Shown one piece after another: positions 1-16,913 of a stretch of 21,287 bases of DNA; the stretch's first letter is position 1, and each line of letters begins with the position of its first letter. The DNA is from a virus, in the IMG/VR virus record IMGVR_UViG_3300018411_000079, positions 1 through 21,287 of that record. One strand, written 5' to 3'. The position numbers and the translations under genes were made by a program. The notes below the pieces were generated by a model, which was given only the letters and a program-made list of their open reading frames with translations, did no database searches and was not told the DNA's origin.

Positions 1-573
1 CAGGTCGGCCGGGGCCAGCAGGCTGGTGCTGTACTGCGCCGTCAGGTCGGCCGGGGCCAGCAGGCTGGTGCTGTACTGCGCCGTCAGGTCGGCCGGGGCC
101 AGCAGCGATTCACGATAATCGCTCCGGATCCCGAAAGGCGGCAGCAGCGAGGTGCTGTAGTCCGCGGTCAACCCTGTTGGCGGAAGCGGTGCTGTGCTGT
201 ACTGCGCCGTCAGGTCGGCCGGGGCCAGCAGGCGGGTGCTGTAGTCCGCGGTCAACTCGGTGGGCGCGGTCAAAGCAGCGCTGTAGTCTGCCGTCAACTC
301 GGTGGGCGGCAGCAAGGCGGTGCTGTACTGCGCGAACAGGTCGGCCGGGGCCAGCAGGCTGGTGCTGTAGTCCGCGATCAACCCAGTGGGCGGCAGCAGG
401 GCCGTGCTGTAGTTTGCCGTCAACTCAGTGGGCGGCAACAAGGCGGTGCTGTATTGCGCTCTCAAGCTGGAGGGCGCGGACAGGGCTGTGCTGTATTGCG
501 CTCTCAAGCTGGTGGGCGCGGACAGCACATTGCTGTACTCGGCGAACAGGTCGAACGGGGCAGACAGTCGGAC
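1..573 (-). repeat. 42-bp tandem repeat array encoding 14-residue repeats in the tail hub C-terminus
   Basis: A conserved Tyr codon recurs exactly every 42 bp at plus-strand positions 31, 73, 115, 157, 199, 241, 283, 325, 367, 409, 451, 493 and 535, giving 13 regular copies and a partial one at the edge. The unit reads roughly T-[A/S]-L-L-[A/P]-P-x-x-L-T-A-x-Y-S. The copies at 1-42 and 43-84 are identical at DNA level, and 85-105 repeats their first half; copies further right differ more. The earliest unit (VRLSAPFDLFAEYS) continues directly from the hub domain, suggesting the array grew from that sequence. One copy (about 106-147) is divergent, with SLLPPFGIRSDYRE. Confidence 0.95.
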
Positions 574-3500
574 CGGCAGCGCAATCCGGATCATCCGGTT
601 CTGCAGCGACACCAGCGCCCCGCGACGAGCCTCTATGATCAAGTCAGCGAAGACCGCGCCTTCCGGCATCGGGTCGGCCACGAGATCCAGCACAAACGAC
701 GTCCCGGTGCCCATATCGATCACCGGCATCTCCGGCATCGGCGCCAGCGCGGCATCCAGCGGCAGGCGGCGCAGGAAGTAGGACACCCCGGTCTCCGGTC
801 CGAAGTTGCTTTCTGCCAGCCAGGAAACGGCCTGATTCGACTGCTGCACCCGATGGCGGTGGGCCCAGGTCAACGTGACCGCGTCTGCAGGGGTGCCCAG
901 GGCGGGCTGATATGACCCGTCCACCTTGAAGGCGGCGGCAGGGTATGGGCGACCCTGGCGGCCCAGCATCTCGACGTCCAGGTACGTGAAGGGACCCTGG
1001 TACGCACCCTTACCATTCTTGGGCCGGCCATATGCCCCGACCTGCTCACCATCCGTGCGCTCTGTTGTGTCGGTACCGGCGAAGGTGCCCACCACGTAGA
1101 TCGCCGTGCCGATGGGCGCAGCCTTCGGGTAGGTGTCGGCGACCGCGCGAATGAGTTTCAGCGCCACCGGGGACGAACCAGGATCCTCGGCCACGGTCAT
1201 GACCTCCCGCTGGCGGTCATCCACGTTGCCCACCAGCACCCAGTCGCCAGCTCGAACGTTCGACATGTCACGCGGGGACGACACCGCCACGGTGATCTCG
1301 GTGTCGGTGATCTCCTCTATGTCCTCGGCCAGTAGCGCGGTCGGGGTGAATTCCGCATCCCGCTCCTGCTGGCTGTCCGTGACCGGCGGAGCGCCTTCCG
1401 GATAAGCAAAGAAGCCGTAATCGATGTGTGACCCGGTACCAGGGCGCCCGCCTGCAAAGACGAAATAGCTGGAGTCATTGCGCGTGGCCACAGCCGCGTC
1501 TTCGCCCAGGCGCTCCACCAGCATCGGGTAAGGTTCGTCGAACCCGGTGACCAGATCGAAGTTGCTGGGCGGGGCGATGGGGTCCACCCAGCCGCTGGGA
1601 GGCGGCACGGCAGCGACCCGGTACTCCTCGCCGAAGATGTCCTCGCCGAACTCGATCCCGACCATGCCGTCGAGCTCACCGTTATCGGATCGGCGGGCAG
1701 CCCGGCAAACCAACTGGTTCACCCCACGCGCCGGCCAGTTGAGCAGGAACACATCCCCGACCTTGATGTTCGCCACCTTCCGGTTCACGGTCAGGCGCCC
1801 CTGGCGGAACGGCTTGGAGTAGCGAGCCAGGTCCCGCTGGCCGACCATCAGGGCGACCCTGTCCGAGCAGATGCCGGAATACTCCATGGTCTGGTTGTTG
1901 ATGGTGCCGACCATGTTGATCGCAGCGGTGTCCTGGACGGCCAAGGCGGAGTCCGACCCGCTCTCCCGGTTCCAGTAGTTGACGGTGATCTGGTTGACGA
2001 GGTCATAGAGCATGGGCTCCGTGAGCTGTTCCAGGCTGCAGTTTGATGGGGTGAGCACCGGCAACGTGGCCACGTCATAGTCCGGCCGGATGAGCTGTAT
2101 CTCCTGCAGACCGGTTTCCGGGTCCTCATAGCGCACGGCATCGATATGGCGGATCACCTCCAGGATGAAGTCGTTCACGGCCATCTCGCTCGTCCAGAGC
2201 ATAGAGAGGCCCAGGCCCTCCTTGTAAAGGGTGTTGGCCGCCTCTGTGAAGGATGGGCCTATGATCGACTCCGGCAGGCCGCGGCCCCATTCCGTGTTGG
2301 TCATGCACTCCCGGATGATGTGAGCCGGGTTCATGTCGTAAGGGCCGGGGGACATGCGATAGGCCGCGCTGCCGTCAGCAGAGGTCAAACCCATGTCCAC
2401 TTCTACGCCGAGGCCCATCTGAGGGCCGCCTTTGGTCCAGTGGGACGTGACGCACATCGGGATCCCGTGCAAGGTAACCCGGTCCCCGTAGATCGCCCCA
2501 GGACCTGGGGTGTACCCCGAGGCGTCCGGACCAACGTGCACCCATGGCATCTGCTCGACCGTGCCCATCTCCAGCCCGGGGCCGCGCCCAGGGGTGAAAA
2601 TCAGGCCCGGCTCGGAGGAGGCGATACTCCAGCAAACCGTGCGGCCATCACGGCCCCGTTCGCCGCGGAACAGCCGGCCCGGCAGGTTGTTACCGGATCC
2701 CCAGTTGATGCTCTGCGGGAAGCTGGCGGACCCGTTTACAGAGGGAGCGAACCACGGCAACCCCATATCCGTGAGCTCCGGGTTTTCCCCCTGGGCCGCT
2801 GCAGTGTTGTACACCATGAACCGTTTGCCCATCGTGGCAGCCATAGCGCGCGGCAAAACCACGTAGACAAAACGGTCCTCCAGGCAAACGATGCTGACGT
2901 CCGGGACTGGGGCCTGACGGCCTCCGCCGTCTCGAACGAAAGCTCCCCCAGGGATCAAGGTGGACCCTGATTGCCAGATTTTCGCGCCGGTCTCAGTGTC
3001 GAGTATCGCTGCGGTAATCTGGTCTCGTTTCGCTCCGCCGACATCAAACTGTGAGACCCACAAGACGAACATCCGACGCTGCGGGGCCTTCTCCACGCCC
3101 ATCCGCCAGCCATTCGGCCCGATAGGGGTATCCTGGAATTCTGCTGTCACTTGCCCGGTCAACGGGGACAAAGTGAAGGAGTTGCCGGCGGGACCGAGGA
3201 CCAGATAGTGCCCATCGGGATCATCGTCCCAACATGAGACATAACGGGGGCCCATGAAATTGTGGCTGCAGTAGTTTGCCGAGTCGTCATAGATCCCCTG
3301 CCCTGTCCTGGAGGCATCGACGATCTGTTTTATGTTGGCCATGAGTGGTGACGCCGGGTACTGGATCCTGGTCACTTCCATAGTTTCGAGGTCGATCACC
3401 GCTGCGTAGTGGTATCGCCATTGCCATGTCGGGGACGACTCCGGCCATCCGGTGTTCGCATAGGGTGTAGCGCCGTCCCCGTCCACGCACAGCGGCCACA

Positions 3501-4314
3501 ACAGTTTTCGCCCGCCCTCCAGGGGGATAGGGTCATCTGTCATAGGCAGGAAGTAGAAGCCGGCGTCAAGGTGGCCGCGCGGCAAGTTGATATACGTCCG
3601 CTTGCCGGTGGCTTGGTCATTGATCGCGACGGTCACCCCGGACGATGTCCCGGCAGGGACGCGGCGTTTGCCCTCCAGTGTCCCGGTTACCGGGGCAACT
3701 TTGATCGAGTAGATGCGCCCCTTGTAGTAGGAGCTCCCCACCATTAGCGCCGTGCCGCTTGCGCGGAATAGTGCGCCCCACACAGAAGATGTGGACCCGT
3801 TGCCGCCGTTGCAGTAGGCCCCGGACGACCCGTAGAGATCTCCCGGCAGGCCGATGCCGGCGATCGCAGGCGCCCACTGCACTCTCCCGGTGGAGGTCGG
3901 TGACCAGATCCGTTGTACCCTGAATTTCCAAGGTTTGAGGTAGGGGTTTGTGCCGACGTAGAGGTGTTTCAGGATGACCGAGACCACGCCCCGGTATGCT
4001 GGGACCAATTTATCCTTGAGGACCGTCTGTAGGTAGCTGTTTTTCGGCTGCTCCCGGTGCCCCATGCCGATGTCGATGTCCCCGGCGATCCCGCCTTCCC
4101 TGTCCTCGCCACCGAACAGCTCCGGCACGTCTACGTGGATGGTCTCGTAACCGTCGGTCAGCCCTTGCCCTGGGCCGTTGTCATCTGCCGGCACCCACAA
4201 CAGTTTGTCGTCTACGTGGATGGCTTTTATTGCGTCGATGGGCCCGTGGCAAATCGAGAAGTGGACCCCTACTTTGTATCGGTAGCCGACCGTTTGGCTT
4301 TTCTTTCCACCCAT
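1..4314 (-). CDS. Central tail hub / tail fibre protein (3' end outside window)
   Basis: An open frame of 1,438 codons from ATG 4314 to the left edge without a stop; I checked the frame codon by codon. AGGA lies 10 nt before the ATG. Residues 1-136 begin MGGKKSQTVGYRYKVG and contain ICHGPIDAIKAIHVDDK, a tail-hub start, up to KPWKFRVQRI. Residues about 137-657 form a large apparent insertion with beta-propeller-like motifs. From DMNPAHIIRECMTNTEWGRG (about 660) the usual hub sequence resumes: LYKEGLGLSMLW, DFILEVIRHIDAVRYED, LIRPDYDVATLPVL, and VALMVGQRDLARYSKPFRQG. Near 1145 comes TLTWAHRHRVQQSN with FGPETGVSY, a block usual late in such proteins. From about 1246 to the edge there are tandem 14-residue repeats. 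The protein should form the tip of the tail and contact the host surface. The stop and any further fibre domain lie outside. Confidence 0.9.
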   Translation of the reverse strand, partial: MGGKKSQTVGYRYKVGVHFSICHGPIDAIKAIHVDDKLLWVPADDNGPGQGLTDGYETIHVDVPELFGGEDREGGIAGDIDIGMGHREQPKNSYLQTVLKDKLVPAYRGVVSVILKHLYVGTNPYLKPWKFRVQRIWSPTSTGRVQWAPAIAGIGLPGDLYGSSGAYCNGGNGSTSSVWGALFRASGTALMVGSSYYKGRIYSIKVAPVTGTLEGKRRVPAGTSSGVTVAINDQATGKRTYINLPRGHLDAGFYFLPMTDDPIPLEGGRKLLWPLCVDGDGATPYANTGWPESSPTWQWRYHYAAVIDLETMEVTRIQYPASPLMANIKQIVDASRTGQGIYDDSANYCSHNFMGPRYVSCWDDDPDGHYLVLGPAGNSFTLSPLTGQVTAEFQDTPIGPNGWRMGVEKAPQRRMFVLWVSQFDVGGAKRDQITAAILDTETGAKIWQSGSTLIPGGAFVRDGGGRQAPVPDVSIVCLEDRFVYVVLPRAMAATMGKRFMVYNTAAAQGENPELTDMGLPWFAPSVNGSASFPQSINWGSGNNLPGRLFRGERGRDGRTVCWSIASSEPGLIFTPGRGPGLEMGTVEQMPWVHVGPDASGYTPGPGAIYGDRVTLHGIPMCVTSHWTKGGPQMGLGVEVDMGLTSADGSAAYRMSPGPYDMNPAHIIRECMTNTEWGRGLPESIIGPSFTEAANTLYKEGLGLSMLWTSEMAVNDFILEVIRHIDAVRYEDPETGLQEIQLIRPDYDVATLPVLTPSNCSLEQLTEPMLYDLVNQITVNYWNRESGSDSALAVQDTAAINMVGTINNQTMEYSGICSDRVALMVGQRDLARYSKPFRQGRLTVNRKVANIKVGDVFLLNWPARGVNQLVCRAARRSDNGELDGMVGIEFGEDIFGEEYRVAAVPPPSGWVDPIAPPSNFDLVTGFDEPYPMLVERLGEDAAVATRNDSSYFVFAGGRPGTGSHIDYGFFAYPEGAPPVTDSQQERDAEFTPTALLAEDIEEITDTEITVAVSSPRDMSNVRAGDWVLVGNVDDRQREVMTVAEDPGSSPVALKLIRAVADTYPKAAPIGTAIYVVGTFAGTDTTERTDGEQVGAYGRPKNGKGAYQGPFTYLDVEMLGRQGRPYPAAAFKVDGSYQPALGTPADAVTLTWAHRHRVQQSNQAVSWLAESNFGPETGVSYFLRRLPLDAALAPMPEMPVIDMGTGTSFVLDLVADPMPEGAVFADLIIEARRGALVSLQNRMIRIALPVRLSAPFDLFAEYSNVLSAPTSLRAQYSTALSAPSSLRAQYSTALLPPTELTANYSTALLPPTGLIADYSTSLLAPADLFAQYSTALLPPTELTADYSAALTAPTELTADYSTRLLAPADLTAQYSTAPLPPTGLTADYSTSLLPPFGIRSDYRESLLAPADLTAQYSTSLLAPADLTAQYSTSLLAPADL
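2341..3906 (-). other. Apparent ~520-residue insertion in the tail hub protein, beta-propeller-like
   Basis: In hub proteins of this type as I remember them, the block KPWKFRVQRI is followed after a short linker by NPAHIIRECMTN. Here about 520 residues separate them. The insert has spaced strand-turn-strand motifs such as SIKVAPVTGTLEG (near residue 205), VIDLETMEVTRIQ (near 310), LSPLTGQVTAEF (near 385) and LDTETGAKIWQS (near 442), the sort of D-x-x-TG turn seen in propeller blades. The reading frame runs through without interruption. The boundary positions are estimates. Confidence 0.55.
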
Positions 4315-6756: not shown

Positions 6757-9700
6757 CAGCCTATCCCCAGGATCTGTTTAATTTCGCGCTTCTTGGAGCG
6801 GATGATGTTAACCGTGGCCGACCCGGTGGACGGGTTCGACATGACCGCCTGGGCCAGCTCGTCCTGGTCCAACATGTTGTAGATGACCGGGCCGGGAAGC
6901 GAGACGTTGGTGCCGCCTGCCCCTCCGCCGCCGTTCATGACGTTGCGCGGGTCGTTCTTGTTCAGCACCTCCTCGCCTTTCTGCAGGATGGTTGGGACCT
7001 CGTCCGGCGCGAGGCCGACCACGCCGCCTGTGTGCATCCTGGGCGCGTTGTTGAACCATGTCGACGGGGCGCTGCGGGTCCGGTTCATGCTACCTGACCC
7101 GACGACGGCGCCATCGTGGGCCACCCCTGCCGCCACGCCCCCGGCTGCCGATGCCGCCCCGCCTACCGGGCCACCGAATGACGCCAGGGAATTCAGGATC
7201 ATCTGCTGCAGGATGGCTTTCGCAATCTGCATCAGGAAGTCGGCGAAGAACTGCCGGATGACGTCGCCCAGGTTGCTCCAGACATCCCCCATCGTCATGG
7301 TGCCGTCGATGATCCCGGCGATGCCCTCGGCGACGGCCTCGATCCCAGAGATCATCCCGTCCAGGACCCCGTTCACGATCAGGGAGTCCATCTTGGTGTA
7401 GGTACCGGACACTTCCTGCAGCCCGGCTCGCATCTTGGCGATCTCGGCGTTGATGAGGGCCAGTTGCTCCGGCGTCATGCTGGTGGCCATGGTCATCGCG
7501 TATTGCTCGAGGGCCGTCACAGCCTTGGCGATCTCGGCGTTCTGGGTGGCATAGAGCTCGTTCACCCGGCGGACCTGCTCGTCTTCCGAGATGAGCCCTG
7601 CCTCCCGCAGCGCGTTGATCTCCTCGATCCCGGCGCGCTTGATGTTGACGTGGGAGATGGCGGCGGCCTCCAGGCGGTCCAGCTCGTCCAGGCGCATCCG
7701 CTGGGTCTCGAGCTCCTGGTTGGTCTTGCGCAGGCCCTCGAACTGCTGGGTCAGCCTTGCTCCCTCTTCCCCTCCCAGCTTGTTGGCCTTGGCGATCAGT
7801 TGGTCATACTGGACGTTGATGACCTTGAGCTGGGCCGCCAGTCGGTCTTCAAACGGTGTAGTCGGGTCCACCTTAGCCTGTTGCTTGCCGACACTGGCGG
7901 CCAGCTTCTCGTACTCCTGGCGCAGCGTCTCCAGGGCCTTGGCCCGCTTGTCGGTCGATGCCTTGACCGCCCCTGCCCCCTGGGCCTGGAATTGGTCGGT
8001 CTCCGCCTTCTTGCGCAGCGCGATGATCTTCTCTAGCTGGGCCACCAGCTTCGCGCCTTCCGCGCCGCCGATACCCTTGGCGGCGGCCATCTGCGGGGCA
8101 AATTCCTGGTCTATCAGCTTGAGCCGGCCCGGCAGGTCTTTCCGCAGCAGGGCTTTCTGGGCGGCGATGTCGGCCTTCTTCGCCTTGTCCTCCAGCTTGG
8201 CGAAAGCCTTGGTCAAGGCGTCGACTTGGCGGGACCGTGCATCGGGGCCGGTGCCGGGATCCTCGGTGAACTCGAACTCGGATTTCATGCCGGCGGCCTG
8301 CTTCCTGGCTTCGGCATATTCGATCTGCGCCCGCTTCTCCGCTTCCATCCGCTGCTTGTTGGTCATGTCCTCCTGCATGGTTTTCCAGTCTTTGTCTAAC
8401 TGGTCCCAAAGCGCTTGGGTCTTGCTGACGAACTCGCCTTCTGGGCCGTCCAGGCTGCCTGCCCAATCCTCCACGGACAGGGCCAGCCCTTCGCCGACTT
8501 TCGGGATCAACCGCAGGATCCCGGCCACTTGCTCGGCCATCACCTTCGCGGCATCGGTGCCCATCTGGTGGATTGAGCGGAACAGCAGCCGTGATAGGTC
8601 CTCGATCCCTGTCACCAGGGACCCGGTGAGCGTGGCCAGGAGATTGCGGAAGCCGTTGAGATACAGGGCCATGGTATCGACGGCATCGCGGAAGGTCTTG
8701 CTCTGGTCGTACATTATCGAGCCGATGTCCCAGGCCAGCAGCAGGCCGCCGACGATAGGGATCAAGCGCATCAGACCTCGCAGGGCTATTCCCAGCCCCC
8801 CGACTGCACCGCTCGATGCGCTTAGTGTCGCTGACCATGCCAGGAACTTTACCCGTGCATCGATGACAGCCTTGACCAGTGTCCCGATCTTGGTCCCCAG
8901 GCCCACGACGATGGAGCCGATTTTCAGGCCCAGTAACACCTTGAAGGCTATGACCAGCAGATCGGTATTGTCGACACACCAGATCAAGGCCTCGGCCAGG
9001 GCGGAGAAGCCTTCGCCCAGGGCTTGCGCGGCCTGCGCCCCGTCCGGGCTATTCAGGAACTCGGTGAGGCGCACCAGGGCGCGGGAATATGCGTCGATGA
9101 AGCCGGAGTCCGCGATCGCCAGTTTGAAGAGGAACATCGCATTCTCGAGGCGAGCCTCGACGGCCCCGAGTGATTTGTCGGCCGCTTCCAACTGTGCGTA
9201 GACCGCCGCGCCTTGCTCCCGGGAGAAGTTGATGACTTCCTTCGCGGTGACGTTGCCGAGCTCGAGTTGTTTGGTGACTTCCTGGATGGACATGCCCATC
9301 GCCTTGGCGAAGGTAGCCACCGCCCCAGGCAGACGCTCGCCGAGCTGGCCGCGCAACTCTTCCGCGTAGACTTGCCCTTTCGACAGCATCTGCTCGAGCG
9401 CCCGGAAGACGCCGTTCATGTCGTCAGCGGAAAGGGCGAATACCCGGCCTGCCTTCGCGATGTTCTCGAAGATGAATTTCGTCTCTTGCAGCGAGTTGCC
9501 CACGGCGTTCGAGGCGACGGCGAACTTGGTGTAGCTGGTGGCCACGACATCCAGGCTGATGCCCAGCTTGTTTGCCAGCCCGACCATGTATTCCCATTCG
9601 GCGTTTTGTGCCTCTGCGCTCTGCCCGACGACCGTGGAGATCTTCAACAGCGCTTGCTGGCGCACCTTGTAGGCATTGACCGCGCCGCCCGCCAGGGTGA

Positions 9701-14639: not shown

Positions 14640-14999
14640 TCACAGCTCGTCATCGGCGCTGGTGCTGCCTTTGCCCTTGCCGCCGGCCTTGGCTTTGGCC
14701 TTGGCTTCGGCTTCGGCCTTGGCTTCGGCTTCGGCCTTGGCTTCTGCTTCGGCCCGGGCGGCTTCTTCGGCCTTGGCTTCTGCTTCGGCGCGGGCGGCCT
14801 CTTCGGTTTTGTGAGGACGGTTCGCTGCTACCCACTTGTCCGCCTCGGCTTCGGTCACAGTGACCAAGCAAAGCGGGTTGATGCGTTCGATTTTCTTGAG
14901 CTCATCCTCGGTCAGCTCGACCACGGTATTGGGCTCAATGACGGTGCGCTTGCCGGCACGTACAAGGTGCAGGGCGCCGGTTGTTTTACGGATCGGCAT
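14640..14999 (-). CDS. Small phage protein with AEAEAK repeats, in the gpFI position
   Basis: A 119-residue protein between the capsid gene and the connector genes, where lambda carries gpFI. The first ~65 residues look like a small folded domain (TGALHLVRAGKRTVIEPN, then TVVELTEDELKKIERIN and a VTVTEAEADKW helix). Residues about 66-105 are an almost pure Ala/Glu/Lys tract with AEAEAK units, expected to be one long charged helix, ending in a Gly/Lys-rich and acidic tail (DDEL). The N-terminal domain type occurs in head gene clusters of other phages as far as I recall, but I cannot name its function. GpFI in lambda helps packaging by aiding terminase-prohead contact; extending that to this protein is inference from position. 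Start ATG 14999 has a GGAG site 9 nt upstream. Confidence 0.7.
   Translation of the reverse strand: MPIRKTTGALHLVRAGKRTVIEPNTVVELTEDELKKIERINPLCLVTVTEAEADKWVAANRPHKTEEAARAEAEAKAEEAARAEAEAKAEAEAKAEAEAKAKAKAGGKGKGSTSADDEL
14686..14810 (-). repeat. 18-bp (six-codon) tandem repeats encoding AEAEAK
   Basis: The plus strand shows repeats of ggccttggcttcggcttc and close variants. On the coding strand they give the hexapeptide AEAEAK and relatives (AEAKAEEAARAEAEAKAEAE). The near-identity of adjacent copies points to recent slippage or unequal recombination, so the helix length is likely to vary among relatives. Confidence 0.8.
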
Positions 15000-16493: not shown

Positions 16494-16913
16494 TTATTTC
16501 TTGTCGAACTTGTAGCCGGTCTGCGCCGAGTAAGCGGACATCAGCTCGTCTGCCTGATCTTTTTCCGCGTCCTGGCCGGACGCTGCGGCGTCAGCCCCGA
16601 CATTCGGATGGTCGCCTTGGTCCATGGCAGTCTGGAAATTGGTGGTCGCGGCGGCGGTGGTGGTGGTCACAGCCGGGGCGGTAGTGGTCGCGGCGGTAGT
16701 GGTCGCGGCGGTGGTGACAACCGGAGCGACAGCAGCTTCGGTCGCGGACGCGGACAGGATGGCGGTCGCGTCTGCAGCACTCATGCTGGTGTTGAAAGCC
16801 AGATGGTTTGCCAGCTTGGAGCGGCCGGTGGCATGTTCGCAGGTCGTGATAGCCGAGATGCGATCGCGCTCTGCTTTCTGGACCTCCGCTTGTTCCTCGG
16901 GAGTGAATGGCAT
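16494..16913 (-). CDS. Putative nested scaffold protein (Nu3-like), internal in-frame start within the protease gene
   Basis: Met299 of the protease (ATG at 16911-16913 on the plus-strand numbering) is preceded by AGGGGA, with AGGGG ending 8 nt before the ATG, a reasonable ribosome binding site inside the gene. Starting there gives a 139-residue protein that begins MPFTPEEQAEVQKAERDR, then has an Ala/Thr-rich linker and an acidic C-terminus. In lambda, the capsid scaffold Nu3 is made from an in-frame internal start in gene C and covers its C-terminal third, so this is the expected place for a scaffold gene, and no separate scaffold gene is present in the window. The start is inferred from sequence and context alone. 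Confidence 0.5.
   Translation of the reverse strand: MPFTPEEQAEVQKAERDRISAITTCEHATGRSKLANHLAFNTSMSAADATAILSASATEAAVAPVVTTAATTTAATTTAPAVTTTTAAATTNFQTAMDQGDHPNVGADAAASGQDAEKDQADELMSAYSAQTGYKFDKK

What the first reader, a model, noticed from the sequence alone, without database searches (positions are those of the whole stretch)
1..573. Exactly periodic 42-bp repeat array at the end of the tail hub gene
Thirteen copies keep exact 42-bp spacing, with no in-frame indel, and the copies nearest the left edge are identical at DNA level while those nearer the hub domain have diverged. That gradient suggests recent expansion at the distal end. A repeated T-x-L-L-x-P-x-x-L-T-A-x-Y-S unit could build a fibrous stalk or a receptor-binding surface whose length can change by recombination, a possible host-range device. 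The repeat type is not one I recognise from named tail fibre families.
Basis: partly seen in the sequence, partly recalled or inferred. Interest (0 to 1): 0.68.

Follow-up and report, generated by a model that had tools for sequence, protein, structure and literature searches.

The report
Swappable repeat stalk on phage tail hub
The left edge of this viral fragment cuts through a real run of 14-amino-acid repeats at the end of a phage tail-tip protein; complete relatives that infect Aeromonas show it to be a repeat tail of 14 to 25 units that changes in length and type and is swapped together with the next gene, probably to hold a host-recognition protein.

Summary
The array is real: 13 full 42-bp copies plus 15 nt (window 1-561, minus strand), with no indel, encoding 14-aa units at the C-terminus of a siphophage tail hub. 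It is cut by the contig end. A near-identical contig stops in the same array 18 nt further on, so total length, distal end and downstream gene are unknown. The 'distal expansion' gradient is largely an edge effect. In complete homologues from Aeromonas Casjensviridae phages (14-25 units of 14-17 aa), the interior is homogenised while both ends are divergent caps. Copy number differs between close relatives: 20 against 15 units at 99% identity of the adjoining hub region. Array type is unrelated to hub similarity (r=0.12, p=0.16) but tracks the next gene (r=0.72-0.78, p=0.0001), so array and next gene move as a cassette between 96-99% identical flanks. The hub is homologous to JBD30 gp53 and to PDB chain 8vjh; the JBD30 hub C-terminus docks into its receptor-binding trimer (PMC11445458). 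Best reading: a modular stalk or adaptor holding a receptor-binding protein, swapped as a host-range cassette. AlphaFold2 gave no confident fold, and trimers were untestable. No library held the repeat.

The parts
1..561 (-). Tandem array: 13 complete 14-aa units (consensus [A/P]-P-x-x-L-x-A-x-Y-S-x-x-L-L) plus 5 aa of a fourteenth; C-terminal end of the hub protein, cut by the contig end
1..99 (-). Perfect 42-bp periodic tract (units 12, 13 and 15 nt of 14), the likely cause of the assembly break
   Evidence: near-twin contig ends 18 nt further in the same tract
100..141 (-). Unit 11 (PPFGIRSDYRESLL), the most divergent unit
1..4314 (-). Tail hub / tip-attachment protein gene, 1438 codons, start ATG at 4314, open at the contig edge
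   Evidence: phrog_1101 E=2.8e-197, tail protein; PF13550 E=2.1e-9
562..2217 (-). Hub region homologous to the solved hub chains 8rk3 (phage JBD30 gp53) and 8vjh (minor tail protein; phage Chi by the 1296-aa length shared with YSD1_29); the array follows directly
   Evidence: (E=1.5e-35 and 6.3e-39)
2395..3927 (-). Approximately 510-residue insertion in the N-terminal half of the hub; propeller-like by eye, no match in PDB sequences

Best explanation
The array is the variable C-terminal extension of the siphophage tail-hub protein. It works as a length-variable stalk or adaptor that projects from the tail tip and holds the product of the next gene, a putative receptor-binding protein (conserved N-terminal domain, variable propeller-like body). 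Unit number grows and shrinks by recombination within the interior of the array, while the first and last units are kept as junction caps. Array and next gene are exchanged together as a host-range cassette, with the hub as a constant socket. Shown here: hub homology, array variability, capped ends, cassette swapping, co-segregation with the next gene. Inferred: physical docking of the next protein on the array, the stalk structure, the receptor role, and that this truncated window carries the same kind of downstream gene.
For: Hub homologous to JBD30 gp53 and 8vjh. In JBD30 the hub C-terminus docks into the helical bundle of the receptor-binding protein trimer (PMC11445458), and a gene annotated 'tail fiber protein' directly follows the hub in the related phage B3. 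Aeromonas phages related to the window carry arrays at the same place. Array class is independent of hub similarity (Mantel r=0.12, p=0.16) but follows the next gene (r=0.72 whole protein, 0.78 first 100 aa, p=0.0001; unchanged when hub similarity is controlled). The first 60 aa of the next protein are at least 78% identical within an array class and at most 57% between classes, whereas the rest overlaps (39 against 40%). phiA034/BUCT551 have 97-99% identical hub ends and downstream flanks but different arrays and next genes; BUCT552, AVP3 and UViG_3300006192 show the same. In sister phage phiWae15 the slot after the hub holds a retroelement-diversified protein: 12 of 12 VR/TR mismatches fall on template adenines. 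Purifying selection acts among units (dN/dS 0.22-0.51).
Against: Genes next to each other can co-segregate by linkage alone, and the first 60 aa of the next protein are also the part closest to the array. The window's own downstream gene is not visible. AlphaFold2 monomer models of the array are low confidence (pLDDT about 25 and 48). The next proteins have no family match that identifies them as receptor-binding.
Confidence: 0.55

Rival explanations
1. Multivalent docking track: each unit (or pair of units) is a copy of a docking peptide, so one hub chain binds many copies of the next-gene protein and copy number sets valency.
For: JBD30-type hubs end in a C-terminus that docks into the receptor-binding trimer (PMC11445458), and the array sits at that place; strong positional conservation within units (L near the unit end 86%) with a loop of variable length; array type tracks the N-terminal domain of the next protein.
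Against: No stoichiometry data; a stalk would also need conserved repeats; one-to-one docking at the terminal cap explains the co-segregation equally well.
Confidence: 0.2
2. The repeats themselves bind the host surface (flagellum, pilus or polysaccharide), and the next gene is only linked.
For: Arrays differ strongly between otherwise near-identical phages; Chi-like relatives in the family are flagellotropic (literature).
Against: Within an array the units are homogenised and under purifying selection, unlike a diversified binding surface; the next-gene slot, not the hub tail, is diversified by the retroelement in phiWae15.
Confidence: 0.12
3. Disordered spacer with no specific partner; repeats expand and shrink neutrally within length limits.
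For: No confident AlphaFold2 fold; Chi-like YSD1 has a proline-rich low-complexity tail at the same place.
Against: Conserved hydrophobic positions across 215 units, dN/dS 0.22-0.51, caps conserved at both ends, class-specific coupling to the next gene.
Confidence: 0.12

Closest known systems
Tail-hub C-terminal arrays of Aeromonas Casjensviridae phages (BUCT551, BUCT552, AVP3, vB_C4, 13AC503A, A18P4 and others)
   Same: Same gene, same place, same repeat plan; hub end 52-65% identical to the window
   Different: Window units are a separate sequence type of 14-aa unit; its distal end and next gene are missing. I found no paper describing these arrays
Phage JBD30 baseplate hub gp53 (8rk3) and the 8vjh minor tail protein (phage Chi)
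   Same: Homologous hub core; hub C-terminus is the attachment point of receptor-binding proteins in JBD30 (PMC11445458)
   Different: Short C-terminal tail in the JBD30 relative B3, proline-rich tail in the Chi-like YSD1; no 14-aa array
Triple beta-spiral fibre shafts (adenovirus fibre type)
   Same: Repeat of about 15 residues with alternating hydrophobic residues, a conserved proline or glycine and a loop of variable length (own knowledge of the family)
   Different: No sequence match; fold and trimer not shown
Phage receptor-binding cassettes, including DGR-diversified adhesins
   Same: Slot after the hub is exchanged or diversified while the hub stays constant
   Different: Here the exchanged unit starts inside the hub gene and includes a tandem repeat array

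Membership tests
JBD30/Chi-type siphophage tail hub | Sequence homology of the hub core to solved hub proteins | tested here: met
   8vjh_A E=6.3e-39, 8rk3_o E=1.5e-35; phrog_1101
JBD30/Chi-type siphophage tail hub | Hub C-terminus docks the receptor-binding protein | not testable with these tools
   known for JBD30 (PMC11445458); here only co-segregation with the next gene
Capped hub array of Aeromonas Casjensviridae phages | Tandem 14-17 aa units directly after the conserved SLQNR...RL hub end | tested here: met
Capped hub array of Aeromonas Casjensviridae phages | Diverged terminal cap followed by the propeller-like gene | tested here: inconclusive
   met in complete relatives; the window is cut before the end
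Triple beta-spiral shaft | Match to known shaft repeats by profile or sequence | tested here: not met
   no shaft family or solved shaft matched
Triple beta-spiral shaft | Homotrimeric fibrous fold | not testable with these tools
   only monomer prediction available
Single-chain beta-solenoid | Confident regular solenoid in a monomer model | tested here: inconclusive
   array pLDDT about 25 and 48, pTM 0.32
Diversity-generating retroelement target | Reverse transcriptase and adenine-specific VR/TR pair beside the gene | tested here: inconclusive
   present in phiWae15; not seen in array-bearing relatives' annotated flanks; the window is cut at this place

The most novel reading that the evidence does not exclude
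The array is a multivalent docking track: a duplicated hub C-terminal docking peptide on which many copies of the next-gene propeller-like protein are strung, so that unit number tunes adhesin valency, and track plus adhesin are swapped together between phages.
Probability: 0.2. Interest if true: 0.72.

Novelty: new variant of a known kind. Interest (0 to 1): 0.5.

Why it matters
It would show a siphophage tail tip built with a constant hub socket, a repeat stalk of adjustable length and a matched, exchangeable recognition protein. That gives a concrete unit for predicting host range in Aeromonas phages (used against fish disease) and a clean system for testing whether stalk length or valency matters for adsorption. 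The repeat had no match in Pfam, PHROGs, NCBIfam or PDB sequences that I could credit.

Tried and rejected
Distal-end expansion: rejected as the general rule, because complete arrays are homogenised inside and capped at the end. Assembly artefact creating the array: rejected, because independent isolates have it; but its length in the window is an assembly limit. Single-chain solenoid: two AlphaFold2 jobs gave no confident fold, so no fold search was run. A natural alignment of full arrays was too gapped to use. Whole-protein Pfam and PHROG hits of the arrays (for example PrtN, HTH_68) are sums of weak repeated matches with no single passing stretch, rejected. The genome-contig scan found no prophage relative. 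Scans of IMG/VR with two array sequences found only the BUCT551 record. The only match of the array outside Aeromonas, Alteromonas phage XX1924 (E=2e-6), is a different protein with an N-terminal alanine-rich 14-aa array, so homology is unproven. Coding on the plus strand: long open frames there have no support and follow from the 42-bp period.

Full report
WHAT IS THERE. The window is a complete IMG/VR record of 21,287 bp, that is, a fragment. It carries a siphophage morphogenesis module on the minus strand: terminase, portal, S49-type protease, capsid region, major tail protein with Ig-like domain, tape measure, tail assembly proteins and the hub. The head module is closest to Aeromonas phage 13AC503A (80% DNA identity over the whole 7.9-kb query), family Casjensviridae. 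The hub gene starts at 4314 and runs off the contig at position 1.

THE ARRAY. Residues 1252-1438 are 13 units of exactly 14 aa (42 bp) plus 5 aa. Lag-42 self-match is 0.69 against 0.23-0.24 one base off register, and at most 0.39 in other 561-bp stretches. There is a 126-bp higher-order period. Only units 12 and 13 are identical; unit 11 is the odd one out. Between units, substitutions favour synonymous changes (dN/dS 0.40 in the window, 0.22-0.51 in relatives), so the repeat is constrained as protein.

THE EDGE. A contig differing from the window at 3 sites in 4 kb (IMGVR_UViG_3300018405_000040) ends in the same perfect tract, 18 nt further on. Two assemblies breaking in the same identical copies is what a repeat-limited assembly gives (inference). 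The array is therefore at least 13 units, of unknown final length.

RELATIVES. Translated search found Aeromonas Casjensviridae phages with the hub at 55-60% identity over the query, array included, and nine Aeromonas records plus an Alteromonas phage with the array alone as query. Their complete arrays have 14-25 units (final part-unit counted) of 14, or 16-17, residues. The units were cut at the pattern xPxx[LMV], so the conservation of P2 and L5 is partly by construction; the 86% leucine near the end of the unit is independent. The length difference lies in a loop between position 9 and the last three residues. Every complete array stops part-way through a unit, and close relatives share the same last units (BUCT552 and PhAER-6: APYGMRPSAQAELV SPYNVRVFAQGELV APYNLRPYGLAE; A18P4 and pAEv1812: APVGLSTSYH). 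In most arrays interior units have near-identical copies (about 88-100%) while the last 2-5 are typically 60-79%. vB_C4 repeats a four-unit block (three RSTVQ, one RSMVQ). BUCT552 and PhAER-6, 99% identical over the last 250 hub residues, have 20 and 15 units.

CASSETTE. I grouped the arrays by eye into four classes and also used a class-free similarity. Array similarity does not follow the hub (Mantel r=0.12, p=0.16) but follows the next gene (r=0.72; first 100 aa r=0.78; p=0.0001; partial r controlling for hub 0.73 and 0.78). phiA034 and BUCT551 are 97-99% identical just before the array and 97% after the next gene, but their next genes are only 61-64% identical in DNA; BUCT552, AVP3 and UViG_3300006192 show the same pattern with three array classes. 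The first 60 aa of the next protein separate cleanly by array class (within at least 78%, between at most 57%); the remaining body does not (39 against 40%). That is the layout of many receptor-binding proteins: constant N-terminal anchor, exchangeable body. Caveat: the N-terminus is also the part nearest the array, so linkage alone could give this.

MECHANISM. The hub core is homologous to JBD30 gp53 and to 8vjh. In JBD30 the hub is a trimer, and the hub C-terminus docks into the helical bundle of a receptor-binding protein trimer (PMC11445458). At the same place other relatives have a short tail (B3, YuA) or a proline-rich tail (YSD1). In sister phage phiWae15 the gene after the hub belongs to a diversity-generating retroelement: VR L030:8588-8707, TR 9136-9255, 12 mismatches, all at template adenines, with a reverse transcriptase gene. 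So the slot after the hub is very likely an adhesin slot in these phages. The most likely role of the array is a length-variable stalk or adaptor between the hub and that adhesin. A multivalent docking track is the more novel alternative.

LIMITS. AlphaFold2 monomer models were poor (array pLDDT about 25 with a two-row alignment, 48 with nine rows); they neither support nor exclude a trimeric shaft. No credible family or PDB match exists for the repeat. The literature library returned no description of these arrays, but it is not complete.

VERDICT. A real, well-bounded and apparently undescribed modular tail-tip feature; a new variant of a known kind (repeat stalk plus receptor-binding cassette).

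Noticed in passing
L030:8588-8707 and 9136-9255 (Aeromonas phage phiWae15): Diversity-generating retroelement right after the hub gene: VR/TR pair with 12 of 12 mismatches at template adenines, and a reverse transcriptase gene
   Followed up: partly
L008:5246-5535 (Aeromonas phage AhMtk13b): The array runs into a frame change; the remaining units and nearly the same terminal cap as 13AC503A lie in another frame. Sequencing error or real truncation cannot be told apart
   Followed up: partly
L017:3797-5350 (Alteromonas phage XX1924): A different tail-module protein has an N-terminal alanine-rich 14-aa repeat array that resembles the window's units weakly (tblastn E=2e-6)
   Followed up: no
window 2395-3927, minus strand: Approximately 510-residue insertion in the hub, propeller-like by eye, with no PDB sequence match
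   Followed up: partly
window 14684-14806: 18-bp and 36-bp repeats encoding an Ala/Glu/Lys-rich C-terminal tail of a small protein (14640-14999, minus strand)
   Followed up: no
window 16640-16716: 15-bp and 21-bp repeats encoding a Thr/Ala linker near the C-terminus of the S49-type protease gene
   Followed up: no
window 1-915, plus strand: Long open frames opposite the array (304 and 211 codons), a by-product of the 42-bp period without coding support
   Followed up: no
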